A stretch of DNA of 11,231 nt from Chitinophagales bacterium. Its GTDB lineage: Bacteria; Bacteroidota; Bacteroidia; Chitinophagales; UBA2359. Position numbers and translations under genes: made by a program. Below the pieces are notes generated by a model that worked only from the letters and a program-made list of their open reading frames with translations, did not search any database and was not told where the DNA came from. Shown here one piece after another: positions 1 through 11,231 of this stretch (position 1 is its first letter; every line of letters begins with the position of its first letter). The stretch is taken from assembly GCA_020629335.1 (NCBI GenBank), contig JAHDDN010000145.1, positions 1 to 11,231 on the forward strand, read 5' to 3'.

Positions 1-170
1 GCTTAGGTATGCGATGGCTGGCTTTAGCAGACAAGCAGACCTTAGCGCAGTAGGAGGTGAACAGCCACATGAGAGCGGACAGCCCGACCTGAATTATTTT
101 TGCCATCCTTGGGCCGACACATGTGTACAGTCCCTACCTATCGATGGCAAAAATAATTCAGGGAAGCCCC
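1..170 (+). repeat. Variable-stem structured repeat, copy A (5' end cut by window edge)
   Basis: This is one of three related copies (others at 5593-5810 and 8436-8638). It shares with them the blocks CTTAG..ATGCG, AGACAAGCAG, CTTAG, and GAGCGGACAGCCCGACC. It ends in a long hairpin: the arm at 88-107 is perfectly complementary over 20 bp to 143-162. The loop (111-140) holds the conserved stretch GGGCCGACACAT...CCCTAC and is followed by GAAGCCCC. The repeat is visibly richer in G+C than the genes around it. It points toward the helicase gene that starts at 309. No protein-coding content is convincing. The 5' boundary is not visible. Confidence 0.8.
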
Positions 171-308
171 TTATAATGATTAATGCGTAATGTTTAATGA
201 ACAAAAAATGAAATACAAATTTACGTAGGTACGCACCCAATATTATAGAAATAAGCCCAATTGTAACGATCAACTGAAGTCGATCGTAGTAATCAAACCC
301 CAAAACAA
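171..308 (+). other. Upstream region of the nuclease-helicase gene
   Basis: AT-rich stretch between repeat A and the start codon at 309. I see no TAnnTTTG promoter element and no ribosome binding site. One inverted repeat is visible: ACGATC at 266-271 and GATCGT at 282-287, with 6-bp arms and a 10-base spacer, ending 21 bases before the start codon. It could be an operator or a leader hairpin, or chance. The real promoter may lie here or in repeat A. Confidence 0.35.
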
Positions 309-3300
309 ATGAACAACCCAACATTAAGCCCTTATTACAGCCAAATAGAACTCGTCTTACTATCAGAGGAAGGCGACGACAATCGAAATATCTTTCGAAA
401 GCTATCCAATACCCTTATTTTAGCTTGTAAAACCATCGTGGAGGAGGAAGCAGAGATATTTGCCACCCATCATGCCAGACTATCCTTTATCTATGAACAG
501 CGATTGCTGCCAAAAGAAATCTATCAAGAACTGGTCGGCATTGGATATATACGCAAAAGTCTCCTAAAAGGCAGTAAGATGGAAATCACAGAAGACATCA
601 TTCAATCCAGTCTAAAAGCCATTGTGCAATTAATCGCCTTTATAGATGGGGAGGAAATTCCAGACAATATTAAATCGCTCCTTAAAAGAGGAAACGAAAG
701 CGAATTAAAATTAACAGACTTTGTCAAAGAAGATCAGGATGCGGTAGAATTCCTAAGAGGCATCGTGATGAGTGTGAGTGGAATCAAGACCAGCGAGAAT
801 GGGATTAAATATTGCTATGTCAACTGTATCAATGAAGCCGATGGACAATACATAGAAGTGGCCCTCAGCGATATGGCTTATAATATTAATGGCGAACTCA
901 AGATGGCCCCACATATGGGCGGGCAAATCAGCAGAATCGCTATGCTGGCCTGGAAATTTGCGAATATCCATTTCTTTAATCTACGGAAGATTGAAAATGG
1001 CGATCAAGTCTATTATGCCTCCACTGGTGAAACGATGGTGGTCTTAGAACCTGATTACTTAGTAGACGTAACGAGTATTGCCAGCTGCTTCCAATGGGAT
1101 AATAATCGGAAGATGCCTGTGGCTAATCCCTTTTTGTATTTGCTGAATCAATTTATGCCAGGGCCATCTGGTACCGCTATCCTAAAGGGTAAGTTAGTCA
1201 ATGATTTCTTAGATGAGCTATTAGTCAATCCAGACGTGAACCGAAATGAAATCTTTTGGGATTGCCTGATGCAAAATTCATTAACCGCCGTAAGAATCGG
1301 ACAAGAAGAAATGGCAGAGCTTCGAGAAAGTGTGATCAATGATCATGTCCCTAACCTAGTAGGCGTAAGAGCACTCTACAAAAACAAAAGCCTCAATATA
1401 GAGCCGACCTTTATCTCCGATAAATACGGTATGCAAGGACGTTTAGACGTATTGGTTGAAGACCTGAATAATGTCAATAGTAAAGATGTATTCGAGCTAA
1501 AGAGTGGAAAGCCTCCTAAATATGGCGCATGGGAAGGACACAAAATGCAGGTGATCTGCTATAATATGCTATTGAAATCTGTCTTCTCTGAATTGAGAGA
1601 AGGAAGTAGCTCCATCTTTTATTCCCTGCTGAGTAGCTCCGATAGAAATAGAAAAGTAGATTCCAATATCAAACTCGAACAGAATGTCATCATGCTGCGG
1701 AATAAATTGGTGTACATCATCCACCAATTAAGCTTAGGAGACTTTAGAATGCTGGATCGACTCAAGATGTCCAGCTTTGGTTATCGACCTTCTTATACGG
1801 ATGAAGACCTCAGAGATTTTGAAAATACCTACAATAAAGCGCAGCCAATAGAAATCAAATATTTCCAAGCTTACTTGGCTTTTATCTATAGAGAGCAGCG
1901 CTCCGCCAAAGTAGGCGATGGAGCTAATCGACAAGACAAAAATGATGGCTTTGCGTCTTTATGGCGGCTTGGGCTCAATGATAAAGTAGATAGCTTCCAA
2001 ATCCTCCACAATTTGTCATTTGATAGGGCAGAAGGGGATAGTGATCTACTTTGCTTTGAAAGAAATAATAAAGAAATTACCAACTTCAGAAAAGGAGATA
2101 TTGTAGTGCTTTATCCGCAAGATGATGACGGGCTACATCCTCTCAATTATCAGATATACAAAGGAAGTATTGATTACTTGGATGAGGAGGTTCTCAAAGT
2201 ACAATTGCGTAATAAGCAAGTCTCCGTAGAGGCATTCAGCAGAATGCGTCATTGGGTCGCCGAAAAAGACTTTATGGAGTCCAGTTTTAATGTGTTGACC
2301 AAATCACTTTATTCTTTCCTTAAAGCGCCTTCTTACAAAAAGGATTTAATCTTGGGCTTAATTAAGCCACAGAGCATCAAGCTGCCTGAAATTGATTTTC
2401 CTTATTTGACATATGTTCAAAAAGAATTGGTCCAAAAAGCCTTAGAGGCTGAAGACTACTTCTTATTACAAGGCCCTCCTGGAACTGGTAAGACTTCTGC
2501 TATGCTGATGTCTGTAGTGAAATATGTCATGGACACCAGCCAACAAACTATTACCATTTTAGCTTTTACCAATAAAGCGGTAGATGAAATTGCTCACAAG
2601 CTTTATTTAGGAGAGTTGGATTATATCAGATTGGGTGGTTCTAATAAAGAAGATCCAAATATTCTTAGGAACCAAATCAAGGAAAAAAACTTGGATCAAA
2701 TCACGGAGATGCTCAAGACGAATCGCATCTTCATCTCTACGGTTTCTTCCTTCTTAAGCAGACAGAATGAATTGGCAGATATCATCAATTTTGATTTACT
2801 CATCATTGATGAAGCTTCTCAACTACTAGAACCACACTTGGTAGGCGTCTTACCCAACTTCCGCAAGTTTATCATGATAGGCGACCAAAATCAATTGCCT
2901 GCGGTCTGTACGCAGAAGTCTAATACCTGCACTGTGGAGGACGAAGAACTACACGAATTAGGTATCTGTGATTTAAGACAATCATTGTTTGAAAGATTGT
3001 TCCACCGATGCGAAAATAATGAGTGGACACACGCCTATGGAACATTGACCAATCACTTCCGTATGCATGAGGAAATTGCGGCTTTGGTCAATCCATTTTA
3101 CTACAATCTTTTAGAAGCTTATACGGAACGTCAAAAAATACGCTTAGAGATAGATGATGTGATGGATAATAGCGATTATGCCCAACTCCTAAAAAATAGA
3201 GTAGTATTCATTCCTTCTGATAAAAGCATTGAATCCAAATCTAATACCCAAGAAGCAAAAAGAGTTTGTGAATTACTACACTATATTCGAAAAGTAAAAG

Positions 3301-3680
3301 GAAAAGCTTTTAGCGAAAAGACGGTTGGCGTAATTACACCTTGGAGAGCACAAATCAACAAAATCAATAGCCTGATTGATGATAAGGAGCTATCCGAAAA
3401 GGTGATGATTGATACAGTAGAGCGTTATCAAGGAGGGGAAAAGGATATTATTATCCTCTCTTTGGCAGTCTATCACAAAAGCCAATTAAAAAGTTTAGAA
3501 TCTCTTTCAGCGGATGGCCAAGTGGATCGAAAGCTCAATGTGGCCATCTCCAGAGCAAGAGAGCAAATCATCATTTTGGGATATGAAAATGCCATCACAG
3601 AAAGCATACACTATAACAAACTACTAAAACACATAAAAAAAGTCGGCTATTTTGCAAATAATTTAGTGATAAATGAGTAA
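309..3680 (+). CDS. Dna2-like PD-(D/E)XK nuclease fused to an SF1B helicase
   Basis: A 1123-residue cytoplasmic protein predicted to unwind and cut nucleic acid, as expected in DNA repair, replication-fork processing or phage defence. Residues 1 to about 300 match nothing I recognise. A Cas4/Dna2-type nuclease core follows: GRLD (D380), ELK (E396, K398), then H411, Q414 and Y418. A likely beta-barrel segment near 593-640 precedes the helicase core: Walker A GPPGTGKT (722-729), motif Ia AFTNKAVDE, Walker B IIDEAS (832-837), motif III GDQNQLPAV (858-866), NHFRMH (915-920), motif V ERYQGGEKD (1038-1046) and motif VI NVAISRAR (1077-1084). All catalytic motifs look intact. The Cys cluster that holds the iron-sulphur centre in eukaryotic Dna2 is not apparent. 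The ATG at 309 sits in an A-rich context with no Shine-Dalgarno. The gene stands alone on its strand apart from the small gene at 3796. The architecture is certain; the biological role is open. Confidence 0.92.
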   Translation: MNNPTLSPYYSQIELVLLSEEGDDNRNIFRKLSNTLILACKTIVEEEAEIFATHHARLSFIYEQRLLPKEIYQELVGIGYIRKSLLKGSKMEITEDIIQSSLKAIVQLIAFIDGEEIPDNIKSLLKRGNESELKLTDFVKEDQDAVEFLRGIVMSVSGIKTSENGIKYCYVNCINEADGQYIEVALSDMAYNINGELKMAPHMGGQISRIAMLAWKFANIHFFNLRKIENGDQVYYASTGETMVVLEPDYLVDVTSIASCFQWDNNRKMPVANPFLYLLNQFMPGPSGTAILKGKLVNDFLDELLVNPDVNRNEIFWDCLMQNSLTAVRIGQEEMAELRESVINDHVPNLVGVRALYKNKSLNIEPTFISDKYGMQGRLDVLVEDLNNVNSKDVFELKSGKPPKYGAWEGHKMQVICYNMLLKSVFSELREGSSSIFYSLLSSSDRNRKVDSNIKLEQNVIMLRNKLVYIIHQLSLGDFRMLDRLKMSSFGYRPSYTDEDLRDFENTYNKAQPIEIKYFQAYLAFIYREQRSAKVGDGANRQDKNDGFASLWRLGLNDKVDSFQILHNLSFDRAEGDSDLLCFERNNKEITNFRKGDIVVLYPQDDDGLHPLNYQIYKGSIDYLDEEVLKVQLRNKQVSVEAFSRMRHWVAEKDFMESSFNVLTKSLYSFLKAPSYKKDLILGLIKPQSIKLPEIDFPYLTYVQKELVQKALEAEDYFLLQGPPGTGKTSAMLMSVVKYVMDTSQQTITILAFTNKAVDEIAHKLYLGELDYIRLGGSNKEDPNILRNQIKEKNLDQITEMLKTNRIFISTVSSFLSRQNELADIINFDLLIIDEASQLLEPHLVGVLPNFRKFIMIGDQNQLPAVCTQKSNTCTVEDEELHELGICDLRQSLFERLFHRCENNEWTHAYGTLTNHFRMHEEIAALVNPFYYNLLEAYTERQKIRLEIDDVMDNSDYAQLLKNRVVFIPSDKSIESKSNTQEAKRVCELLHYIRKVKGKAFSEKTVGVITPWRAQINKINSLIDDKELSEKVMIDTVERYQGGEKDIIILSLAVYHKSQLKSLESLSADGQVDRKLNVAISRAREQIIILGYENAITESIHYNKLLKHIKKVGYFANNLVINE

Positions 3681-3795
3681 CTATTCTCAAAAAAGGTCGT
3701 ATCAATAAGTACAGGCATGCATTCCGCACTGAGCCAAAAAGCATTAAGCTTAAGTGTGGCGTATATGTAATGAACACTAACTAATTTTTTTAGCC

Positions 3796-3999
3796 ATGAC
3801 AAAGAAAGATGTAATTGCTATGTTGATCTTTCTCTTTTTAGGTGTATTTGTTTGTATTGATAGTAAGGCACCAACAATAGAATCAGAAAGCAGCGTCAAG
3901 ACTCCACTAGTAGAAACGCCCGAAGAAGGCTTGGATGAAGAGGTATTTGAAGAAGAAATTTTCTTAGCAACACAACAAGAATTAGACGTAGCGGTTTAA
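3796..3999 (+). CDS. Small acidic membrane-anchored protein, function unknown
   Basis: I do not recognise this 67-residue protein. After a short basic start (MTKKD), residues 8-21 form one hydrophobic segment that could be an uncleaved membrane anchor or signal. The Cys at position 20 lacks a good lipobox. The remainder is low-complexity and strongly acidic (about a dozen Glu/Asp between residues 42 and 65), as in a short periplasmic or cytoplasmic tail. It starts 115 bases after the helicase gene stops, and its stop codon overlaps that of the convergent TetR gene in a hairpin at 3988-4007. A clean start, an organised protein composition and the shared terminator-like hairpin favour a real gene. 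Its small size and lack of known relatives keep confidence moderate. Confidence 0.5.
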   Translation: MTKKDVIAMLIFLFLGVFVCIDSKAPTIESESSVKTPLVETPEEGLDEEVFEEEIFLATQQELDVAV

Positions 4000-4007
4000 T
4001 CCGCTAC
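3988..4007. terminator. Hairpin spanning two convergent stop codons
   Basis: GTAGCGG (3988-3994) pairs perfectly with CCGCTAC (4001-4007) around the loop TTTAAT. Both stop codons lie in the loop: TAA at 3997-3999 for the plus-strand gene and 3996-3998 for the minus-strand gene. The position suits a bidirectional terminator. There is no clear T-run on either side, so termination is an inference from position and structure. Confidence 0.5.
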
Positions 4008-4637
4008 TTCTTGATTCATCATTACCAAATAATATTCATTGAAGGAATCAAAACCTTCCTGGGTAAGGTGTGGCACTACATAACTATACAATAGATCGGA
4101 ATAGTAAAGAATCTTATCTTCTTCTTTTCCATCATAGAAAAACTCTGCGTCCGCAATAGATGAATTCAATATAATCAACATATTGTGAATCACCTTATCA
4201 TAAAAGCCCTCAATTCGCTCTTCCTTTAACAATCCACGACTCATCATACTATCAGTAAGCTGTCGTAATAACTTCTTACGATTATTATTTTGCATTTGAG
4301 CATCTCGCTTCATAGAATCCATTCGTCTATTCACCTTTGCAAAACCCAAAAACAAAAACTTATACTTAAAATAAACCTTCAGTACCACCTGCAAATTAAT
4401 CATCAATCCTCCAAAATCATCCAATTTATGTAGCATGACCTTAAAAGTCTCTGCCAACTCTTGCTGCATCTGCCTATATAAGGCCGAAATAATATCGTCT
4501 TTCTTGGGAAAATGATAAGTCAAATTACCATAACTAATCCCCAGATGATCACTAATATTTCTACTGGAAATTTCACTCACTCCATTATTATTAAACAGCT
4601 CCAAAGCCGCCTCTAAAATCTTGTCTCTTGTTTTCAT
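3996..4637 (-). CDS. TetR/AcrR-family transcriptional regulator
   Basis: A 213-residue DNA-binding repressor, the usual length for the family. The N-terminal helix-turn-helix covers about residues 5-50: TRDKILEAALELF, then the ISSRNISDHLGISYGNLTYHF recognition region and the family-typical PKKDDII ending. The rest is a helical ligand-binding and dimerisation domain that varies between family members, so the ligand cannot be read. It lies 68 bases downstream of the patatin-like gene on the same strand and converges on the small gene at 3796. A palindromic site 17 bases upstream of its start (4654-4674) suggests autoregulation. Linkage to the patatin gene suggests a lipid-related signal, which is inference only. 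The ATG at 4637 gives the normal N-terminus. Confidence 0.9.
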   Translation of the reverse strand: MKTRDKILEAALELFNNNGVSEISSRNISDHLGISYGNLTYHFPKKDDIISALYRQMQQELAETFKVMLHKLDDFGGLMINLQVVLKVYFKYKFLFLGFAKVNRRMDSMKRDAQMQNNNRKKLLRQLTDSMMSRGLLKEERIEGFYDKVIHNMLIILNSSIADAEFFYDGKEEDKILYYSDLLYSYVVPHLTQEGFDSFNEYYLVMMNQEVAD

Positions 4638-4653
4638 TTTACTGCTTTAATTG

Positions 4654-4674
4654 ATAAGTCTCTATTGGACTTAT
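4654..4674 (-). promoter_or_regulatory. Palindromic operator candidate in front of the TetR gene
   Basis: ATAAGTC (4654-4660) and GACTTAT (4668-4674) are perfect 7-bp arms around a 7-base spacer. The site lies 17-37 bases upstream of the TetR start codon, where an autorepressor would sit. No T-run follows, so a terminator for the patatin gene is less likely. I did not find this arm sequence in front of any other gene in the window. Confidence 0.5.
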
Positions 4675-4685
4675 GATCTGAGCCA

Positions 4686-4710
4686 TTATGAACTCATTTA
4701 AAGTTTTATG
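4686..4710. repeat. 25-bp direct repeat, copy 1 (covers the patatin stop codon)
   Basis: Matches 5502-5526 at 24 of 25 positions (T/C difference at the ninth base). The core reads CATTTAAAGTTTTATG on the plus strand. This copy contains the stop codon of the patatin-like gene (4706-4708) and lies about 50 bases upstream of the TetR start. Confidence 0.8.
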
Positions 4711-5491
4711 CCATTAATTGTTCAAAAAAACGCAAACCATCCTCATATCCAATCTCAATATTGGCATTAATCCGCTCACGACTAAAATCAAACACCCCAC
4801 CCAAAGGTTCACTGGGTCGAATTGCATGAATTTGTGTACCAACAGGCAATTTATATTTTCCCTTCAAAAACAAAGTTGAAGTTATACCTGTTAAATCCAC
4901 TGTTATAATAATATCAGGACGTGTTTCTAATAATAAAGACACTGGCAAATTATCATGTATGCCACCATCTGAATAAAATTTATCCCCAATCTGATGAGGC
5001 TTAAAAAACGGAAAAGATGCACTCGCAATCACAAACTCAGCCAACTGACCCTTCGGAATATCCTCTTTATAAATAGTATAACCCTTTCTCTCCGTTACAC
5101 TATAAACCGAAAATCCAAAGTCAACAGGAGATTCTCGTATCCTATCTTCATCCAAATTATCCCGAATCACATCCTTAAAAGGCGTCGTATCTAAACCCCG
5201 ATTCGCCAATATCTTGCGCCCCAAAGATATAGATTTTCTAACACCTTTCTTATTTTCGTCCTCCATCTGGGCATGATGCGAAAAAAAAGTCTTCTTTTCC
5301 AACATCCCCCAAAGCCTAATCAATAAGCCATAATCCTGCTGAGCAATCGCCGCTCCATTAATAGAGCCAACAGACGCACCAGTCACCGCATGAATCGGTA
5401 TCCCTAATTCACGCATTGCCCGCCAAATACCTACCTGATAAGCACCCTTAAGCCCTCCTCCAGATAAACAAATTCCAATCTTCTGTTTCAT
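4706..5491 (-). CDS. Patatin-like phospholipase (RssA-type)
   Basis: A 261-residue serine acyl hydrolase of the patatin family, expected to cleave acyl chains from phospholipids or other lipid esters. The family elements are all present: the oxyanion motif GGGLKG (11-16), the nucleophile elbow GASVG with Ser40 (38-42), the ASASFPFFKP block (156-165), and the second catalytic residue Asp175 in DGG. There is no signal peptide or membrane segment, and the length fits compact single-domain bacterial members, so it is probably cytoplasmic. It is followed 68 bases later by a TetR regulator on the same strand, and the whole gene is bracketed by a 25-bp direct repeat. Repeat B ends about 100 bases upstream of its start. 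Some bacterial patatins are effectors in CBASS-type defence, but no cyclase or other partner is present here. The true substrate is unknown. Confidence 0.93.
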   Translation of the reverse strand: MKQKIGICLSGGGLKGAYQVGIWRAMRELGIPIHAVTGASVGSINGAAIAQQDYGLLIRLWGMLEKKTFFSHHAQMEDENKKGVRKSISLGRKILANRGLDTTPFKDVIRDNLDEDRIRESPVDFGFSVYSVTERKGYTIYKEDIPKGQLAEFVIASASFPFFKPHQIGDKFYSDGGIHDNLPVSLLLETRPDIIITVDLTGITSTLFLKGKYKLPVGTQIHAIRPSEPLGGVFDFSRERINANIEIGYEDGLRFFEQLMA

Positions 5492-5501
5492 TTTCCTTAA
5501 T

Positions 5502-5526
5502 TTATGAACCCATTTAAAGTTTTATG
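5502..5526. repeat. 25-bp direct repeat, copy 2 (upstream of the patatin gene)
   Basis: Matches 4686-4710 at 24 of 25 positions, in the same orientation, 816 bp away. It ends 11 bases before the patatin start codon, so the two copies bracket that gene. It could be a regulator site in front of both minus-strand genes or the trace of a duplication or insertion. Confidence 0.8.
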
Positions 5527-5592
5527 TCTGATTATCCATACTAATACAATACACAAATTTCATTCATAGTTCATCTTTCATAATTCTAATAT

Positions 5593-5810
5593 GGGGCTTC
5601 CCCCTTTTTAATTTTTTATTCGACCGTAGGGGCGCTACCAATGTGTGCGCCCTCAAATAAAAAATTAAAAAGGGGTCGGGCTGTCCGTTCTTATGCGGCT
5701 ATTCAGCAGCAAGTTTGCTAAGTGCTGCTTGTCTGCCCTTCGGGCCAGCCGTCGCATCACTAAGCGCACTAAGCTGCTTCATCACGCCACATACCACTAC
5801 CATCCCTAAG
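5593..5810 (-). repeat. Variable-stem structured repeat, copy B
   Basis: On the minus strand this copy runs from CTTAGGGATGGTAG at 5810 to GAAGCCCC at 5600-5593. It shares the family blocks GGTATGTGGCG, CTTAGTGATGCG, AGACAAGCAGCACTTAG and CGGACAGCCCGACC. Its terminal hairpin has perfect 20-bp arms (5601-5620 and 5656-5675) rich in A and T, unlike the arms of copies A and C. The inner hairpin GGGCGC (5630-5635) pairs with GCGCCC (5647-5652) around the conserved TACCAATGTGT. A second hairpin, GCCC..GGGC, is visible near 5738-5745. It points toward the patatin gene. Confidence 0.85.
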
Positions 5811-5860
5811 CCAAAAACAAGGATGAACGATGAAAAAGTCAGATCGTCAGCATAGATTAT

Positions 5861-6100
5861 ACCCCGCTGGCGGGGTCAATCCGCAGGATTGGGGGTGGAT
5901 AATCCCCAATTACTTCTATGGCGCAAGTCTTTTTGACTTGTGCCGTTCGAAGGACACTATTCCTGACATAGCTTTTTTGATTGATGCCCAGAATTTCGGT
6001 AAGTCTTTTTGACTTACACGACCGATTAATTTGCCATAGGCAAGTAAAAATCAATGCAAGACTCAGCAGGCACAAGTGAAAAACACTTGCGCTATAAGAT
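5861..6100. repeat. Cluster of short hairpins (palindromic repeat element)
   Basis: At least five perfect or near-perfect stems are packed here: ACCCCGC/GCGGGGT (5861-5876), CAATCC/GGATTG (5877-5891), ATTGGGG/CCCCAAT (5888-5910), GGCGCAAGTC-TTTTT-GACTTGTGCC (5920-5944), GTAAGTC-TTTTT-GACTTAC (5999-6017) and GCACAAGTG-AAAAA-CACTTGCGC (6070-6092, one mismatch). The second and third stems share GGATTG and so are mutually exclusive. The flanks TATGGCGCAAGT and ACTTGCGCTATA show that the right part is roughly an inverted copy of the left. Open frames on both strands read through the stems and look spurious. It resembles a non-autonomous palindromic element. Confidence 0.65.
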
Positions 6101-6152
6101 TTGGAACTACTTTACAGGATTTTTCAAAAATATGAATTCCCCTTTCATTTGT

Positions 6153-6315
6153 TAGTGGTTCAGTTTATAAGTTTCTGACTTTAAGTTGTAGGATTTTTGC
6201 GATTATACAAGGCATTTTTGAGGCCCATAGCAGGGCTACGAAACGAAAAAATAACGAAGTAGAATCGTAAAAAGACAAAACTTGGGCTGTCAAGAACTAA
6301 TAAATTGAACCATTA
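6153..6315. mobile_element. MITE-like element with 27-bp terminal inverted repeats
   Basis: The left end 6153-6179 (TAGTGGTTCAGTTTATAAG...) and the right end 6289-6315 (...AATAAATTGAACCATTA) are inverted repeats matching at 22 of 27 positions. Complementarity continues inward with gaps (AAGTTGTAGGATTTTTGCGATT against AATCGTAAAAAGACAAAACTT), and the centre has a GCCC..GGGC hairpin. At 163 bp with no coding capacity it fits a miniature inverted-repeat element, although a structured RNA or two-sided terminator cannot be excluded. I see no certain target-site duplication. Confidence 0.6.
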
Positions 6316-6324
6316 GGCACTCAA

Positions 6325-6340
6325 TTGATTTTGAAATCAA
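6325..6340. promoter_or_regulatory. Inverted repeat TTGATTT-TG-AAATCAA
   Basis: Perfect 7-bp arms around a 2-base centre, about 190 bases upstream of the acyl-CoA dehydrogenase start. It may be a regulator site. It is far from the best -7 element (6431-6438), so its role is uncertain. Confidence 0.3.
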
Positions 6341-6385
6341 CCTTTCTAATTATTATGCATTAAAAACGCTAGTTTTTTCAAAAAA

Positions 6386-6403
6386 TTAGGCATTTATGCC
6401 TAA
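6386..6403 (+). promoter_or_regulatory. Operator candidate 1, TTAGGC-N6-GCCTAA
   Basis: TTAGGCATTTATGCCTAA is an 18-bp palindrome with 8-bp complementary arms. It is the first of two sites with the same half-sites, 30 bp apart centre to centre, so both lie on nearly the same face of the helix. It lies just upstream of the predicted promoter of the acyl-CoA dehydrogenase gene. Confidence 0.5.
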
Positions 6404-6415
6404 AAATACGTAATT

Positions 6416-6433
6416 TTAGGCCAATAAGCCTAA
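6416..6433 (+). promoter_or_regulatory. Operator candidate 2, overlapping the promoter
   Basis: TTAGGCCAATAAGCCTAA has the same 6-bp arms and spacer length as the site at 6386-6403. Its last three bases form the start of the TAATTTTG -7 element, so a bound dimer would block RNA polymerase. This suggests repression of fatty-acid oxidation by an unidentified regulator. Confidence 0.5.
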
Positions 6434-6438
6434 TTTTG
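6431..6438 (+). promoter_or_regulatory. Bacteroidota-type -7 element for the acyl-CoA dehydrogenase gene
   Basis: TAATTTTG is an exact match to TAnnTTTG. I see no TTG -33 element at the usual distance, so it may need an activator or be a weak core. It would give a leader of about 85 bases before the start codon at 6528. Confidence 0.5.
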
Positions 6439-6527
6439 CAAACTATTCAGCAAGAAATGGCGTTTCAATACCAGAAATAATTTTTTTAACGGAGCATAAA
6501 AGCTCTTACAAACAACTCTACATACAA

Positions 6528-8327
6528 ATGGAAGATATTTTAAAACAACCCACCACTGTTAAAGGGGGCGCATTTTTGTTAACAGAATCAAAAGCCCAAG
6601 ATACCTTTATTCCAGAAGAATTTACAGAAGAGCAGTTAATGGTTAAGCAAGCTGCTAAAGACTTTGTCAATCAAGAAATTGAGCCTCGATTAGAAGAATT
6701 AGATGCACAGTCCGATTATACCATGATGCCTAAGCTATTAAAGCAAACTGCTGAATTAGGTTTCTTAGGGATTGGAGTGCCAGAAGCTTATGGTGGTTAT
6801 CCTGCTCCATTTGTTGATAGCCTTATACTAAATGAAGAAATGGCTAAAGCAGCTTCCTTCTCATTAACCATCGGAGTACAAACAAGTATTGGTATTGCAC
6901 CTATCTTATTATACGGTAATGATGAGCAAAGAGCTAAATACTTACCAAAATTAGTAACAGCCGAATGGAAAACTTGTTATTGCTTAACTGAACCGAGCTC
7001 TGGTTCTGATGCAAATTCAGCCAAAACAAAAGCCGTGCTTACTGAAGATGGGAAGCACTATATTGTCAATGGACAAAAGATGTGGATCACGAATGCAGGT
7101 TGGTCTAATATCTTCATCGTATTCGCTAAAATTGATGACGACAAAAACTTATCAGCCTTTATTATAGAGGAAGAATTTGGCGGTGTTACAAGAGGAGCAG
7201 AAGAAAAGAAAATGGGAATTAAAGGATCTTCTACACGTCAAGTATTCTTCAATAATGTAAAAGTACCAGTAGAAAACCTATTGGGAGAACGTGGCGGCGG
7301 ATTCAAAATCGCTGTAAATGTATTAAATACAGGTAGAATCAAATTAGGAGTTGCTGCTATTGGTACCAACAAAAAAGCCATGAAGCATGCTATCCAATAC
7401 GCACAAGAAAGAATCCAGTTTGGCCAGTCGATTTCAAACTATGGGGCGATCAAGCACAAATTAGCTGAAATGGCAGCCAGAACATTCGCTATAGAATCAG
7501 CTGGCTATCGTACAGGTAATTATATCGATCAAAAGTATGACGAATTAATTGCTGAAGGTGCGGAAGATCACGTTGCTAAATCAAAATCAGTAGAAGAATA
7601 CTCTATTGAGTGTGCGATCTTAAAAGTATATGGATCAGAATCACAACATTATTGTGCAGATGAGGGCGTTCAAATATACGGTGGTATGGGCTTCTCAGCC
7701 GAAGCACCGATGGATCGTATGTATAGAGACGCAAGAATCACTCGTATTTTTGAAGGCACCAACGAAATCAACCGTATGTTGATCGTGGATATGTTGATCA
7801 GAAAGGCAATGAAAGGTCAGTTAGATTTCTTCTCATCTGTAAAAGAGATCATGAAGGAATTAACAGCTCTACCATCATTAGATAGTAGCGATGCCCCTCT
7901 TTGGAAAGAGAAAAAGACTTTAGCGAATATGAAAAAAGCAGCCATCTTATTAGCAGGTGCTGCAGCTGAAAAATTCGGATCTAAAATCAAAGATGAGCAA
8001 GAAATCCTGATGAACGTAGCCGATATGATCATCCAAATTTACTTGTATGAATCAGCTTTGCTAAGAGTTGAAAAAAGAATGTCAACGACAGGAGAAGAAG
8101 CGAACGCCATTCATTTAGATATGATTCGTATCTTACAGCATGAAGCAACAGATGTAGTAGCAAAAGCTGGAAGAGAATGTATCTACGCAATGGAAGAAGG
8201 AGCAGATAAAGAAAGAATGATGCTTTTAGCTGTAAAACGCTACACTAAAGTCCTACCATTCAATCTAAAAAGTGCTCGCCGCCGAGTAGCAGAAACAGTT
8301 ACAGAAGCAGGCGGATATTGCTTCTAA
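6528..8327 (+). CDS. Acyl-CoA dehydrogenase, long form (VLCAD/ACAD9-like)
   Basis: A 599-residue FAD enzyme that oxidises acyl-CoA to trans-2-enoyl-CoA, the first step of beta-oxidation, passing electrons to electron-transfer flavoprotein. The three acyl-CoA dehydrogenase domains are clear in order: N-terminal helical region (about 33-145), middle beta domain with CYCLTEPSSGSD (150-161) and MWITNAG (185-191), and C-terminal helical domain with GGMGFSAEAP (385-394). The catalytic base is Glu409 in RIFEGTNEI. A further C-terminal helical region of about 170 residues makes it VLCAD-length rather than the 380-400 residues of short- and medium-chain enzymes. There is no signal peptide. The ATG at 6528 follows an A-rich leader without Shine-Dalgarno. 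The promoter carries two phased inverted repeats, and a strong terminator follows, so it is a single-gene unit. Chain-length preference is inferred from size only. Confidence 0.95.
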   Translation: MEDILKQPTTVKGGAFLLTESKAQDTFIPEEFTEEQLMVKQAAKDFVNQEIEPRLEELDAQSDYTMMPKLLKQTAELGFLGIGVPEAYGGYPAPFVDSLILNEEMAKAASFSLTIGVQTSIGIAPILLYGNDEQRAKYLPKLVTAEWKTCYCLTEPSSGSDANSAKTKAVLTEDGKHYIVNGQKMWITNAGWSNIFIVFAKIDDDKNLSAFIIEEEFGGVTRGAEEKKMGIKGSSTRQVFFNNVKVPVENLLGERGGGFKIAVNVLNTGRIKLGVAAIGTNKKAMKHAIQYAQERIQFGQSISNYGAIKHKLAEMAARTFAIESAGYRTGNYIDQKYDELIAEGAEDHVAKSKSVEEYSIECAILKVYGSESQHYCADEGVQIYGGMGFSAEAPMDRMYRDARITRIFEGTNEINRMLIVDMLIRKAMKGQLDFFSSVKEIMKELTALPSLDSSDAPLWKEKKTLANMKKAAILLAGAAAEKFGSKIKDEQEILMNVADMIIQIYLYESALLRVEKRMSTTGEEANAIHLDMIRILQHEATDVVAKAGRECIYAMEEGADKERMMLLAVKRYTKVLPFNLKSARRRVAETVTEAGGYCF

Positions 8328-8360
8328 AATAATTGTCCCCTTAAATAAACATAATTCTTT

Positions 8361-8400
8361 AGCAATGGCATATTTTAGATAATATGCCATTGCTTTTTTT
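8361..8400 (+). terminator. Strong intrinsic terminator after the acyl-CoA dehydrogenase gene
   Basis: AGCAATGGCATATT (8361-8374) pairs perfectly over 14 bp with 8381-8394 around the loop TTAGAT, followed by a run of T to 8400. It starts 33 bases after the stop codon. A weaker stem, TCAGCA/TGCTGA (8408-8427), followed by ATTTT lies just downstream. Confidence 0.92.
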
Positions 8401-8435
8401 ATAAAACTCAGCATAAATACTTGCTGAATTTTGCG

Positions 8436-8638
8436 CAAGGGATAGAAGCGGTATATGGCGTACATGGAGCAACTTACGAAACTTAGTGATGCGCAGGCTC
8501 CTAAGAGACAAGCAGCACTTAGTGTAGTAGATGCTACATAGCCATATAAGAGCGGATAGCCCGACCCATTTTTTGCCATCATTGGGCCGACACATAGGTA
8601 CGGCCCCTACAAATGATGGCAAAAAATGGGATGCGCCC
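8436..8638 (+). repeat. Variable-stem structured repeat, copy C
   Basis: Begins near CAAGGGATAGAAG and carries the family blocks GGTATATGGCG, CTTAGTGATGCG, AGACAAGCAGCACTTAG and GAGCGGATAGCCCGACC. The terminal hairpin has perfect 19-bp arms (8565-8583 and 8612-8630), and the inner hairpin GGGCCG (8584-8589) pairs with CGGCCC (8601-8606). It ends in ATGCGCCC instead of GAAGCCCC. With the terminator it fills the 324-base gap between the two beta-oxidation genes and stops 13 bases before the next start codon. The promoter of that gene must therefore lie inside the repeat or before it. Confidence 0.85.
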
Positions 8639-8651
8639 AAACCATCCAAAC

Positions 8652-9470
8652 ATGAAATTTTATACTAAAGAACAAACGGATACACTTCACGAACAAACAT
8701 TTGCCTATAATATTGTATCAGAAAAAGATCATGTGCTTACTATTAGACTTAATCGTCCAGAAAAGCGAAATGCGCTCAAACCACAGATGGTTAATGAGAT
8801 GGTATATGCTTTAGCTTATGCGCATCATAATAATGATATTTGGGCAGTTGTCATAGAAGGAGAAGGGAAGGTTTTTTGTGCAGGAGCTGATTTGAAATCA
8901 TTCATGAATCCGACGGATGATTCTGATTCGACGATACCGCAACCGCAAGTTGATATAACGATAGGGGATGCCTTTAAGACATTATACAAACCATGTATTG
9001 CTAAAGTAGACGCTCCCGTTTATGCTGGAGGTTTTTTGATATTGGGAGGTTGTACACATGTATTAGCAAGTGAAAAAGCGACCTTTGGATTGCCAGAGGT
9101 AAAAAGAGGATTATGGCCCATGCAAGTTATGGCGAGTTTATGTGAAGTAATGCCAAACAGAAAGGCATTGGATATGTGTATCAGAGGAAAATCATTAGAT
9201 GTAAAAGAGGCTTATGAATCTGGCATCGTAACAGAAATATCTGATGATGTAGACGCAAGCGTTGATTCATTAATACATGATATCAAACAGAATTCGCCCG
9301 CCGCCATCAGATTGGGCCTGAAAGCCTATGACGAAATGAAAACAAAATCCTCTGATGAGCAACATCAATACCTCCGCATGATGCTCATGAATGTATTACA
9401 AACAAAAGACGCCAGAGAAGGAATCGCCGCCTTCAAAGAAAAACGCCAACCCAATTGGACTGGCGAATAA
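8652..9470 (+). CDS. Enoyl-CoA hydratase/isomerase-family (crotonase-fold) protein
   Basis: A 272-residue crotonase-fold enzyme acting on acyl-CoA thioesters, probably in beta-oxidation beside the dehydrogenase upstream. Visible elements are RLNRPEKRNAL (32-42), the first oxyanion-hole motif CAGADL (76-81), the AGGFLILGG helix start (125-133) and FGLPEVKRGLWPM (145-157). Of the two catalytic glutamates of classical hydratases, the second is present (Glu149 in LPEV). The first is replaced by Leu129, as in mitochondrial enoyl-CoA isomerases. An isomerase or other crotonase reaction is therefore more likely than plain hydration; this is inferred from alignment by eye. I chose the ATG at 8652 because in-frame ATGs at 8613 and 8616 lie inside repeat C and would add residues encoded by its hairpin arm. 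The stop is 7 bases from the stop of the convergent TonB-domain gene. Confidence 0.88.
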   Translation: MKFYTKEQTDTLHEQTFAYNIVSEKDHVLTIRLNRPEKRNALKPQMVNEMVYALAYAHHNNDIWAVVIEGEGKVFCAGADLKSFMNPTDDSDSTIPQPQVDITIGDAFKTLYKPCIAKVDAPVYAGGFLILGGCTHVLASEKATFGLPEVKRGLWPMQVMASLCEVMPNRKALDMCIRGKSLDVKEAYESGIVTEISDDVDASVDSLIHDIKQNSPAAIRLGLKAYDEMKTKSSDEQHQYLRMMLMNVLQTKDAREGIAAFKEKRQPNWTGE

Positions 9471-9477
9471 TCAATAC

Positions 9478-9870
9478 CTATTCATCCTCCAAAGAAAAGA
9501 AAATAGGCAAATTAAATCTAAAAGGTCTAATTTCTCCTTCTATAGTACCTGGCGTCCAGCTTGGCATTGCCTTAACAATTCTCAATGCCTCTGCGCCACA
9601 ACCTTCTCCTATATCCTCAGCGATAGAGTGCGCTTTTAATTTTCCATCCTTACCCACAATGAAAGAGACTGTAACATAGCCCTCCACTTTTTTATCGATA
9701 GCGGATTGCGGATATTTTAGATTGCCATCAATGAATTTGAGTAAAGCTTCTTGGCCACCAGGGAAGGTAGGTTGAATAATGCCATCTGTATCAGAGATTT
9801 CTGCTTGGGCGTGGCTTACAAAAGGTAAGCATAATAATAGGCTAATAAGTATTAAGTATAGGTATCTCAT
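9478..9870 (-). CDS. Secreted TonB C-terminal-domain protein
   Basis: A 130-residue protein with a signal peptide (MRYLYLILISLLLCLPFVSHAQA, cleavage near residue 23) followed by a single TonB C-terminal domain: FPGGQEALLKFIDGNLKYPQSA (36-57), GYVTVSFIVGKDGKL (64-78), GCGAEALRIVKAMPSWTPG (90-108) and the RFNLPIFF end. Normal energy-transducing TonB proteins keep an N-terminal membrane anchor and a Pro-rich linker. Here the domain is alone, as is common in Bacteroidota, so it is probably a free periplasmic protein whose partner is unknown. An in-frame ATG at 9909 would put 13 polar residues before the signal peptide, so the start at 9870 is preferred. It is divergent from the gene at 9999 and convergent with the crotonase gene. 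Confidence 0.88.
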   Translation of the reverse strand: MRYLYLILISLLLCLPFVSHAQAEISDTDGIIQPTFPGGQEALLKFIDGNLKYPQSAIDKKVEGYVTVSFIVGKDGKLKAHSIAEDIGEGCGAEALRIVKAMPSWTPGTIEGEIRPFRFNLPIFFSLEDE

Positions 9871-9950
9871 AATAGACTGTATTTGATTTATTCTATTGCC
9901 TTTTGGCATCTAATTTAGACTATTTTTAGCACAATAAGTTTATTAATTCG

Positions 9951-9958
9951 TAATTTTG
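9951..9958 (+). promoter_or_regulatory. Bacteroidota-type -7 element for the secreted-protein operon
   Basis: TAATTTTG matches TAnnTTTG exactly and lies 40 bases before the start codon at 9999. No TTG -33 element is evident at the usual spacing. A small TGCC-TTTT-GGCA hairpin (9897-9908) sits between the two divergent genes. Confidence 0.5.
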
Positions 9959-9998
9959 CCGCAGAAACCCCCACCAAATAAATAACAAAAGACTGATA

Positions 9999-10457
9999 AT
10001 GAGTTACTTAGTTAATAAATTAAGAGGGAATAATGTTTCTATTATTCCTGTTTTGGGCTTTGTTTTTGCATTTTTATGCCTAACATTGCTCCCTACAAGC
10101 ACTTTGCAAGCACAAAATCCAGACTATGGAGACTTAGAAATTCAAAATGATTCTAAGCGAGTTTTGACGGTCAAGGTGATGCATAAAAATGGCAATGGTC
10201 GCCACAGCCTTTTCCAAATCAAACCGGGTACTATGGAGAAGGCTACCTTCACGGATACTTTAGAGTATTACCTTAAAGTTAAAGCGGAATTAGAAGGACA
10301 AAAAACCATGTATTGGAAAGATGGCGATTACCAACCTTATGACGGATCAAAAGGTTTTATAATCACCACTATACAATTTGATATAGATGAAGGTAGCCAA
10401 TCAGAAGCGCCAGGAGCATCTATATCCGAAGATGAATTTGAAAGAGACGATCTATAA
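9999..10457 (+). CDS. Secreted protein of unknown function
   Basis: I do not recognise this 152-residue protein. It has a hydrophobic export segment (residues 14-31) ending in LPTSTLQAQ, so cleavage near residue 37-39 is likely, and no second membrane segment. The mature part alternates short beta-strand-like stretches (DLEIQND, LTVKVMHKNG, SLFQIKPGT, EYYLKVKAEL, FIITTIQFDI) and ends in an acidic tail (EDEFERDDL), which suggests a small beta-sandwich domain in the periplasm or outer membrane. No cysteines remain after the signal region. It is the first gene of a probable two-gene unit with the Asp-box protein starting 10 bases after its stop, and it follows a good -7 element. Confidence 0.75.
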   Translation: MSYLVNKLRGNNVSIIPVLGFVFAFLCLTLLPTSTLQAQNPDYGDLEIQNDSKRVLTVKVMHKNGNGRHSLFQIKPGTMEKATFTDTLEYYLKVKAELEGQKTMYWKDGDYQPYDGSKGFIITTIQFDIDEGSQSEAPGASISEDEFERDDL

Positions 10458-10467
10458 ATTAAGCATC

Positions 10468-11231
10468 ATGACCAAGTTTATTACAAGCCTTTTATTACTA
10501 TTAATCTGTCTATCTATGAGCGCTCAATCTGATTGGGAAGAAGCTTGGAAAAAAGTGGAAAGCCCAACCAAATCTCATCTTCGAGGACTTGCAGTTGTTG
10601 CTGGCCCTTCCGATGATAGCGAAGATATAGTTTGGGCAAGCGGTACAAAGGGAACGGTGATTCGTTCTGCTGATTTAGGTAAGACTTGGCAGGCGTTCCA
10701 AATTAAAGGAGCGGAAGAATTGGATTTTAGAAGTATTTATGCAATGAATGGCAATACCGCTTTTGTATTAAGTGCAGGCGATGTCGCCAAACTCTATCAA
10801 ACGACGGATGCTGGTTTGACGTGGAAATTAGTTTACCACAATGAAGAAAAAGGTGTTTTCTTTGATGGCATTCATTTTACGGATAGCCTTAGAGGCATGG
10901 CTTATAGTGATCCAGTCAATAATCAATTTTTAGTGATTAAAACATTAGATGGAGGAAATACTTGGACGCCTATTGATGGCAGTGCAATGCCTGCTCCCAT
11001 AGAAACAGAAGCTGGTTTTGCTGCTAGTGGAACAGGTATCGTAATGCGTGGCGAAAAGGTTTGGATTGCTACGGGTAATGGCCCAAAATCAAGAGTCTTA
11101 TATTCCCCAGATTTTGGAGCAACTTGGTCTGCTCATGAAACACCTATGCGTACAGGAGAAGGCATGGGGATTTTCTCTATGACATTTTTGGATGATGAAA
11201 GAGGGATAGTCGTTGGTGGTAGTTATGTGGA
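10468..11231 (+). CDS. Secreted Asp-box (BNR)/YCF48-like beta-propeller protein, 3' end outside window
   Basis: The first 254 codons of an exported protein. A signal peptide (MTKFITSLLLLLICLSMSAQ, cleavage after residue 20) is followed by repeats that each carry an Asp box of the form S/T-x-D-x-G-x-T-W: SADLGKTW (67-74), TTDAGLTW (112-119), TLDGGNTW (159-166) and SPDFGATW (213-220). The irregular spacing of 45-54 residues fits a beta-propeller of the YCF48/sialidase-like fold, which in Bacteroidota is often annotated as an oxidoreductase or glycosyl hydrolase without proof. I see no catalytic residues that would justify an enzyme name. The start at 10468 lies 10 bases after the previous gene, so the two are probably co-transcribed. 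The gene runs off the window end. Confidence 0.88.
   Translation, partial: MTKFITSLLLLLICLSMSAQSDWEEAWKKVESPTKSHLRGLAVVAGPSDDSEDIVWASGTKGTVIRSADLGKTWQAFQIKGAEELDFRSIYAMNGNTAFVLSAGDVAKLYQTTDAGLTWKLVYHNEEKGVFFDGIHFTDSLRGMAYSDPVNNQFLVIKTLDGGNTWTPIDGSAMPAPIETEAGFAASGTGIVMRGEKVWIATGNGPKSRVLYSPDFGATWSAHETPMRTGEGMGIFSMTFLDDERGIVVGGSYV

What the first reader, a model, noticed from the sequence alone, without database searches (positions are those of the whole stretch)
1..8638. Three repeat copies keep perfect 19-20 bp stems with different stem sequences
At 88-162, 5601-5675 and 8565-8630 each copy ends in a hairpin whose outer arms are perfectly complementary. The arm sequences differ: copy B is almost all A/T plus CCCC, while A and C share only a TTTTTGCCATC core at different offsets. 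The loop (GGGCCGACACAT..GTAC.GCCCCTAC) and the flank (GCGGACAGCCCGACC) stay similar. Paired change with conserved loop and flank suggests selection on structure, a transposition mechanism that copies one arm from the other, or a structured RNA. I do not know a named family for it.
Basis: seen in the sequence. Interest (0 to 1): 0.7.

Follow-up and report, generated by a model that had tools for sequence, protein, structure and literature searches.

The report
Mobile hairpin repeats nesting smaller repeats
Three copies of a scattered, non-coding bacterial DNA repeat related to the catalogued "Flavo-1 RNA" each carry a long hairpin whose two sides differ between copies yet match each other, with a second small repeat sitting at the tip, which points to a mobile DNA element rather than a fixed RNA gene.

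Summary
The same architecture recurs in related genomes; I fetched 80 copies from six. Ends are sharp, three identical pairs sit at different places, P1 pairs in 378 of 380 cells (76 copies read), and a leuA-leuB gap holds the element in 6 of 29 genomes while the four closest relatives have 6-26 nt there. hp2 is usually a mini-hairpin, variable between copies, rarely expanded. In the window its apex is a GTAG-tagged REP, a family found beside RAYT transposase genes elsewhere; in two other genomes another REP sits at the apex of hp1. G-U pairs are rare, and A and C differ by a block exchanged in both arms, so arms are probably renewed at DNA level or recognised as single-stranded DNA. The moving enzyme is unknown and only three copies of the REP-bearing form are available. 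Flavo-1 is known; mobility, extended structure and REP nesting appear unreported in the papers I could search.

The parts
1..170 (+). Copy A, Flavo-1 type-2 element, 5' part cut off by the contig start
   Evidence: Aligns with B and C; core strand AGCGGACAGCCCGACC at 74-89 (also in L151) and tail GAAGCCCC at 163-170. Not reported by Rfam
88..162 (+). Copy A hairpin hp2, perfect 20-bp variable stem
111..137 (-). GTAG-tagged REP at the apex of hp2 in copy A (inner stem partly decayed)
   Evidence: family
5593..5812 (-). Copy B, complete Flavo-1 type-2 element
   Evidence: RF01705 match 5670-5816 (-), 22.3 bits, E 0.016, sub-threshold; P1 GGCTT/AAGCC
5808..5812 (-). Copy B P1, 5' strand GGCTT
   Evidence: same P1 pair in L199, L294 and L300
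5794..5807 (-). Copy B conserved core 5' strand AGGGATGGTAGTGG
   Evidence: Read from the sequence; lies in the RF01705 match; these exact letters are in none of 375 fetched loci
5674..5689 (-). Copy B conserved core 3' strand AACGGACAGCCCGACC
   Evidence: these exact letters are in none of 375 fetched loci
5601..5675 (-). Copy B hairpin hp2, 23-bp A/T-rich variable stem
5626..5652 (+). GTAG-tagged REP at the apex of hp2 in copy B
5595..5599 (-). Copy B P1, 3' strand AAGCC
8433..8638 (+). Copy C, complete Flavo-1 type-2 element
   Evidence: RF01705 match 8428-8570 (+), 23.7 bits, E 0.0034-0.0059, sub-threshold; P1 GCGCA/TGCGC
8433..8437 (+). Copy C P1, 5' strand GCGCA
   Evidence: same P1 pair in L314 and L322
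8438..8451 (+). Copy C conserved core 5' strand AGGGATAGAAGCGG
   Evidence: Letter for letter in 9 of 375 fetched loci; L229 and L249 hold both core strands
8551..8566 (+). Copy C conserved core 3' strand AGCGGATAGCCCGACC
   Evidence: Letter for letter in 12 of 375 fetched loci
8565..8630 (+). Copy C hairpin hp2, perfect 19-bp variable stem
8584..8610 (-). GTAG-tagged REP at the apex of hp2 in copy C; 26 of 27 letters shared with a viral contig (L137:6106-6132)
8632..8636 (+). Copy C P1, 3' strand TGCGC

Best explanation
The three repeats are copies of one short non-coding mobile element, a divergent subtype of the family catalogued as Flavo-1 RNA. One strand folds into a Y: a 5-bp closing helix (P1), a long hairpin (hp1) with conserved internal-loop strands, and a second hairpin (hp2). 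Shown, in relatives: the fold's paired changes, sharp ends, dispersal, and presence or absence at one orthologous site. Inferred: the element moves as folded single-stranded DNA, helped in trans by an enzyme not identified here, possibly a Y1/HUH transposase. In the window's lineage hp2 took up a GTAG REP at its apex, probably once, before these copies spread, since all three carry it at the same place (inferred). The arms between REP and base are free to change in sequence but stay complementary. The most likely reason is arm-to-arm copying at DNA level (replication template switching in a long hairpin), with purifying selection on the folded strand helping.
For: Membership: full-model RF01705 matches to B and C at the homologous place and strand; C's two core strands occur letter for letter in relatives. 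Architecture: 7-row seed alignment 98 of 98 cells paired, 7 pairs changed on both sides; 90 matches in 90 fetched stretches (five of them seeds), 99.8% of 1210 cells paired, 9 of 14 pairs changed on both sides, 0 of 500 shuffles as high; P1 read from hit ends in 76 copies: 378 of 380 cells Watson-Crick plus 2 G-T, and 9 of 10 copies with another 5' strand than GCGTT fully compensated. Mobility: sharp ends and largely unrelated flanks, three identical pairs at different places among 80, leuA-leuB gap filled in 6 of 29 (query genome included) and 26, 9, 6, 23 nt in the four closest. Arms: block exchanged in both arms between A and C; G-U 12 of 389 and 5 of 266 apical pairs versus 64 of 404 in letter shuffles. 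Nesting: GTAG tips in 15 of 341 genomes, RAYT genes near tips in 6 of those 15; another REP at hp1 apices in two genomes.
Against: No genome is held for the window, so only three copies of the REP-bearing form exist here, and A lacks its 5' part. RF01705 scores are far below the cut-off (22-24 of 42 bits); in a whole-window scan they have E 0.25 and 0.61 while an unrelated family reaches 0.092, and other chance families score about as well near B. RF01705 does not report A. Model R1 does not report B or C, presumably because their loops are too long; R1 was seeded with shortened B and C, and one search uses an alignment fitted to it. For B the closing P1 is predicted with DNA parameters only; the RNA fold chose another pairing. 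Copies fetched were among the best-scoring listed, which favours intact P1 and short hp2. In a first mixed set of 36 loci, mostly type 1, gene context was not REP-like: 5 convergent, 5 divergent, 17 opposite-opposite versus 8 same-same. No transposase was found: in 183 loci (L172-L354) one IS200-like gene lies near one element. Template switching rests on a three-copy comparison and low G-U, not on parent-daughter pairs. No expression data.
Confidence: 0.62

Rival explanations
1. Same mobile element, but the arms stay paired only because a transposase or other protein must recognise the folded single strand: purifying selection on ssDNA structure, with no arm copying. (Shares most of the best explanation, so the odds overlap.)
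For: P1 and core helices also covary with almost no G-T, and there selection on a recognised fold is the natural cause. Conserved internal-loop strands suggest a recognised shape.
Against: Between A and C a 7-nt and a 3-nt block are exchanged in both arms, which single mutations plus selection explain poorly. hp2 varies freely (31 forms in the 79 of 80 copies readable), so its sequence is hardly recognised.
Confidence: 0.35
2. Flavo-1 and the window copies are functional structured RNAs (sRNA or leader) under RNA-level selection, and the high copy number is incidental.
For: The 2010 discovery paper lists it as probably RNA, not cis-regulatory (table passage). hp1 folds better than most shuffles as RNA (0 of 200 for C and 4 of 200 for B fold as well). 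All three window copies lie upstream of, and in the same direction as, the next gene (A before 309, B before 5491, C before 8652).
Against: G-U pairs are rare (9 of 1210 core cells; 12 of 389 apical pairs). Orientation of type-2 copies is even, 22 versus 19 of 41 co-directional; in the mixed, mostly type-1 set it is 8 versus 17, so if anything antisense. In F. psychrophilum hits were indistinctly sense or antisense and many were not in transcribed regions (PMC9723704, passages read). Presence varies at an orthologous site.
Confidence: 0.15
3. The whole structure is just a REP or BIME moved by a RAYT, the outer stem being part of the REP.
For: The tip is a GTAG REP, and RAYT genes lie near such tips in 6 of the 15 genomes with tips.
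Against: Among the 34 tips outside the window listed the best ungapped flanking stem is 4 bp. hp2 without a REP is the rule in the 80 relatives read, so hp2 belongs to the Flavo-1 unit.
Confidence: 0.04
4. Intrinsic terminators or chance palindromes.
For: Many relatives lie near gene ends; C starts 38 nt after a strong terminator-like hairpin at 8361-8394.
Against: No T-run follows either end of the three hairpins (read from the sequence). The terminator scan did not call them, but it allows loops of 3-8 only and so could not have. Chance is excluded by shuffles.
Confidence: 0.03

Closest known systems
Flavo-1 RNA (Rfam RF01705)
   Same: Same conserved strands (GAT.G.AGCGG and AGCGGA.AGC), same order of internal loops, many copies per genome in the genomes where it rings
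   Different: Window type has ggg/ccc where the model has cc/gg, a 5-bp variable P1 and a second hairpin hp2 not in the Rfam model; scores below the cut-off; evidence here is for a dispersed element, Rfam files it as an sRNA gene
GTAG-tagged REPs and RAYT transposases (Di Nocera 2013, PMC3733652; TnpA_REP subclasses, PMC6006769)
   Same: The hp2 apex has the GTAG foot, a short variable stem and a conserved loop ACC.ATGTGT; RAYT-like genes stand near such tips in relatives
   Different: Here the REP sits at the tip of another element's hairpin. The 2013 paper lists GTAG REPs in Proteobacteria, Cyanobacteria, Chloroflexi and PVC, and CGTC repeats in Bacteroidetes (section 4, part 1 read); the 2018 paper already lists subclass 2.4 in Bacteroidetes (passages), so the tip family as such is not new
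Atypical structures flanking subclass 2.6 TnpA_REP genes in Bacteroidetes (PMC6006769)
   Same: Bacteroidetes, dispersed, atypical secondary structure without a GTAG foot; a candidate for the same thing (passages read)
   Different: Their sequences were not seen, and no such gene was found beside the elements examined
Template-switch maintenance of RNA hairpins (Monttinen and Loytynoja 2022, PMC8794818)
   Same: Multi-base paired changes with perfect stems (abstract and start of introduction read)
   Different: Described there for RNA genes; here a mobile repeat family

Membership tests
Flavo-1 RNA (RF01705) | Score over the family's gathering threshold (42 bits) | tested here: not met
   23.7 and 22.3 bits for C and B, no report for A; so described as a divergent relative, not as a curated member
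Flavo-1 RNA (RF01705) | Both conserved base strands with their internal loops, full model aligned, right strand | tested here: met
   Model 1-76 aligned in B and C; C's alignment shows no non-standard pair. Copy L151, of the same subtype, scores 35.5 bits
Type-2 subtype as defined here | P1 closes hp1 and hp2, followed by CC | tested here: met
   B and C; 74 of 76 model-picked relatives perfect; A not testable at its 5' end
GTAG REP | GTAG foot, short complementary stem, family loop | tested here: met
   B and C; A has GTAG with a partly broken inner stem
GTAG REP / RAYT | Cognate RAYT gene in the same genome | not testable with these tools
   No genome for the window; in relatives RAYT genes near tips
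Transposable element (MITE-like) | Sharp ends, dispersed copies, presence or absence at an orthologous site | tested here: met
   For relatives only, one orthologous site
Transposable element (MITE-like) | Identified transposase or target duplication | tested here: inconclusive
   No target duplication noticed by eye in flanks; one IS200-like gene beside one copy, none beside the others within the fetched flanks
Intrinsic terminator | Hairpin followed by a T-run | tested here: not met
   Read from the sequence at both ends of each hairpin; the scan allows only loops of 3-8 and could not judge these
Retron ncRNA | Adjacent reverse transcriptase | tested here: not met
   No such domain in the Pfam scan of 8 window proteins; the a1/msr/msd/a2 layout is recalled, not searched

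The most novel reading that the evidence does not exclude
Flavo-1, filed as a small RNA, is a large family of non-autonomous mobile elements that travel as a folded single DNA strand closed by a base-paired P1. Its hairpins act as landing pads for REPs, and each round of movement or replication rebuilds one hairpin arm from the other, so stem sequences change wholesale while staying perfect.
Probability: 0.3. Interest if true: 0.85.

Novelty: new variant of a known kind. Interest (0 to 1): 0.62.

Why it matters
Flavo-1 has been an unexplained Rfam sRNA since 2010. Reading it as a dispersed element with defined ends would correct annotation in the Bacteroidota genomes that carry it, make 'covariation equals RNA' a caution rather than proof, and open a tractable case of how perfect hairpin arms renew themselves. 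The nesting of REPs in another element's hairpins is a concrete, testable interaction between two repeat families.

Tried and rejected
Whole-repeat searches failed at first. The combined flank-plus-tip pattern had 0 hits in genome contigs and viral contigs. blastn with copy B found nothing in 23 genomes (L001 not held), one hit in 395 genomes, a 29-nt match inside a 159-aa ORF and without the architecture, judged chance, nothing in 123 genomes of one order, and nothing in plasmids or phages. 45 viral contigs held a 16-mer of hp1; blastn of the three copies against all loci then held gave only a 24-nt match, in 5 of them, without the structure. A consensus-translation protein search found no candidate. 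Helicase, patatin and acyl-CoA dehydrogenase relatives did not place the host more closely than Bacteroidota. The idea that the outer stem belongs to the REP was rejected. A terminator in the 5' flank as a general target was not supported: 7 of 72, against 6 of 72 on the other side and a background of 80 of 1480. A RAYT near Flavo-1 copies was not found. An element query in plasmids and phages found nothing. The AAGTS hairpin pattern was in none of 375 loci. Of seven genomes two (G035, G118) had no match to the second REP. Rows dropped or not found: 6 of 80 copies, which also took a second element instead of the model's hit in L300 and L306, and these rows enter; 4 of 80 copies with clipped coordinates left out; L258 lacked the 3' motif; two of 32 ringing genomes gave no locus, L339 lacked leuB, the flag in L354 fell in coding sequence and was discarded, L330 and L333 were recognised by reading, and gaps without a recognised element run up to 211 nt. 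In one search the loop was artificial.
Full report
WHAT WAS CHECKED. As single-stranded DNA each folds better than all 200 dinucleotide shuffles. A and C share TTTTTGCCATC. Between the flank GACC and this core A has TGAATTA and C has CAT, and each 3' arm carries the exact reverse complement.

THE UNIT IS LARGER. Folding the neighbourhood showed more. In B and C a 5-nt sequence far upstream pairs with 5 nt just after the hairpin: GGCTT with AAGCC in B, GCGCA with TGCGC in C. C gives this with RNA and DNA parameters, B with DNA parameters only. Copy B is 5593-5812 (-), copy C 8433-8638 (+); copy A begins before the contig does.

THE LOOP IS A REP. Read on the other strand the loop is GTAG-GGGCGC-TACCAATGTGT-GCGCCC (B). 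The pattern GTAGGG..ACC.ATGTGT..CCC occurs in 15 of 341 genomes of one order, up to 36 times per genome, with no reversed-control hit; in the listed matches most stems vary in a paired way, while two genomes (G561, G624) have single odd or repeated matches that may not be REPs. A viral contig has 26 of the 27 letters of copy C, and a looser pattern matches in 2 of 296 genomes. Among the 34 tips outside the window listed the best flanking stem was 4 bp, so the long variable stem is not a REP property. RAYT-like genes lie near tips in L143 (about 1 kb away), L144, L145, L149, L155 (a fragment) and L165, that is in 6 of the 15 genomes; two of these proteins match Pfam Y1_Tnp. One further RAYT lies in L021, a locus fetched for another gene.

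THE REST IS FLAVO-1-LIKE. Rfam at the default threshold gives nothing. With permissive settings RF01705 (Flavo-1) aligns over its full length to B (22.3 bits, E 0.016) and C (23.7 bits, E 0.0034 to 0.0059). The cut-off is 42 bits, and in a whole-window scan the E-values are 0.25 and 0.61, no better than chance families such as sau-63 at 0.092, with A not reported. Alone this would not suffice. But two copies match at the homologous place and strand, the model's pair cc/gg is gg/cc here, and C's two core strands occur letter for letter in relatives, together in L229 and L249; B's exact strands occur in none of 375 loci and A's 3' strand in L151. RF01705 is a multi-copy family: 17 of 118 genomes ring, 13 over the cut-off, up to 36 matches, the number scored per genome. 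Among its matches a subtype has the window architecture: n5-AGGGAT.G.AGYGG ... ARCGGAYAGCCCGACC-hp2-n5'-CC.

SCALE AND COVARIATION. A model R1 seeded with seven shortened copies, B and C among them, finds 66 of 100 genomes of one family, up to 32 copies each. It does not report B and C themselves, which have much longer loops. I fetched 80 of the listed copies, from six of these genomes. P1 read from hit ends in 76 of them gives 378 of 380 Watson-Crick cells plus 2 G-T, 74 copies perfect, and 9 of 10 copies with a 5' strand other than GCGTT fully compensated. On 90 aligned matches, five of them seeds, 99.8% of 1210 cells pair and 9 of 14 pairs have changes on both sides, more than any of 500 shuffles. 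Both sets were picked by a model that rewards pairing. One copy found later, outside the seeds, agrees: L151 scores 48.3 bits with R1 and 35.5 with RF01705; its genome also has GTAG tips and a RAYT (L165).

HP2 ELSEWHERE. hp2 is usually a mini-hairpin: CCCTTGTGGT, CCCTTGGGG and CCCTTGGGT (with linker) are the commonest of 31 forms in the 79 of 80 copies readable. It is clearly expanded (34-35 nt) in two of these, L296 and L300, in a second L300 element, and in L151. In genome G052 the seven R1 copies show CC-TTTA-GG twice, ACCGC-T6-GCGGT, ACCG-TTTT-CGGT, ACCACGC-T9-GCGTGGT (with an imperfect P1) and a longer nested form, and one, L215, has none. The window forms are therefore extreme cases of a hypervariable hairpin.

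MOBILITY. Ends are sharp and flanks mostly unrelated, though in some genomes upstream letters are shared by several copies. Three pairs of identical copies lie at different places. Between leuA and leuB, read in 29 genomes, the element is present in 6, the query genome included, two of them (L332, L333) with a decayed P1. The four closest relatives have gaps of 26, 9, 6 and 23 nt. Of 66 type-2 copies with both neighbours, 23 lie between convergent genes, 41 between co-directional genes (22 same, 19 opposite) and 2 between divergent genes (23 versus 2, p = 1.9e-5; 22 versus 19, p = 0.76). In 23 of 74 the 3' end lies -1 to 10 nt from the stop codon of an opposing gene (simple ORF calls). An earlier mixed set of 36 loci, mostly type 1, differs: 17 opposite-opposite, 8 same-same, 5 convergent, 5 divergent, 1 incomplete. 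Window copy B lies between divergent genes.

DNA OR RNA. Apical helices of at least 6 bp have 12 G-U in 389 pairs in type-2 copies and 5 in 266 in type-1 copies, against 64 in 404 in letter shuffles of the type-2 segments. Core cells have 9 G-U in 1210. G-U is a pair in RNA but a mismatch in DNA, so this favours a DNA-level process; a strictly constrained RNA could also be poor in G-U. Weinberg et al. 2010 (PMC2864571, passages) list Flavo-1 as probably RNA and not cis-regulatory. A transcriptome of F. psychrophilum (PMC9723704, passages) found hits indistinctly sense or antisense and many outside transcribed regions, though some coincided with 5' transcribed regions. Against my reading, hp1 of C and B folds better than most shuffles as RNA (0 of 200 and 4 of 200 as good), and all three window copies point at the next gene.

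NESTING IS RECURRENT. In four type-1 copies of two other genomes the hp1 segment carries a different palindrome, GAGCGnAGTCGARA, itself dispersed: 12 matches in G080, 36 in G107, 130 in G052, 12 in G091, 5 in G044, none in G035 and G118, none reversed. The four are G080:C1:3071162 and 337069 and G107 C15:21185 and C25:2878.

HOW IT PROBABLY WORKS. Shown: a dispersed element, variable in presence at one orthologous site, whose single strand has a conserved Y-shaped fold. Inferred: movement as folded ssDNA by an enzyme in trans; REP insertion into an exposed hairpin; renewal of arms by template switching, a process described for RNA-gene hairpins (PMC8794818, abstract). Not found: the enzyme. 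Subclass 2.6 TnpA_REP genes, mostly in Bacteroidetes and flanked by atypical structures with copies elsewhere in the genome (PMC6006769, passages), are the best lead; one IS200-like gene lies beside a copy in G072.

NOVELTY. In the held library 'Flavo-1 RNA' gave 0 papers, Flavo-1 with other terms two papers (PMC9723704; PMC2864571), RF01705 four papers (three seen only in the listing), and a search with transposon and repeat listed no Flavo-1 paper among the ten shown. The two read in passages do not describe it as mobile there. Searches for REPs and MITEs in Bacteroidetes were seen as listings. Subscription journals are not covered.

Noticed in passing
window 5925-5940 (+), 6001-6016 (+), 6073-6088 (-): Three short hairpins AAGTS-TTTTT-SACTT with paired C/G variation, a further palindromic family between copy B and the acyl-CoA dehydrogenase gene (none in 200 shuffles); a slightly longer pattern is absent from the 375 fetched loci
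   Followed up: partly
window 6153-6315: A 163-bp stretch bounded by inverted repeats TAGTGGTTCAGTTTATAAG / CTAATAAATTGAACCATTA, MITE-like
   Followed up: no
L141:1435-1635 (Persicobacter psychrovividus plasmid): A roughly 200-bp dispersed unit with ends GGGACTGTTGCACAA/TTGTGCGACAGTCCC holding two inverted tip-like REPs; 14 places in 5 plasmids
   Followed up: partly
L375:5705-6151 and 6334-6444: An IS200-like Y1 transposase gene 182 nt from a type-2 Flavo-1 element
   Followed up: partly
L296, L300 (G862): Expanded hp2 of two copies share an apex motif TGAGTTT....AAACGAAG, possibly another nested repeat
   Followed up: no
L245-L324, 3' ends of elements: 3' flank is AAA (0.77, 0.92, 0.91) and often reads AAATTA, so many elements end a few bases from an opposing TAA stop codon
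   Followed up: partly
L269, L273, and the second element of L300: A few elements start directly after the T-run of an intrinsic-terminator-like hairpin, though not often enough to be a rule
   Followed up: yes
window 1-11231: The contig comes from a poorly sampled Bacteroidota-like host: its patatin has no relative over 40% identity among the 79 others listed, and its acyl-CoA dehydrogenase tops out at 67% among those listed
   Followed up: partly
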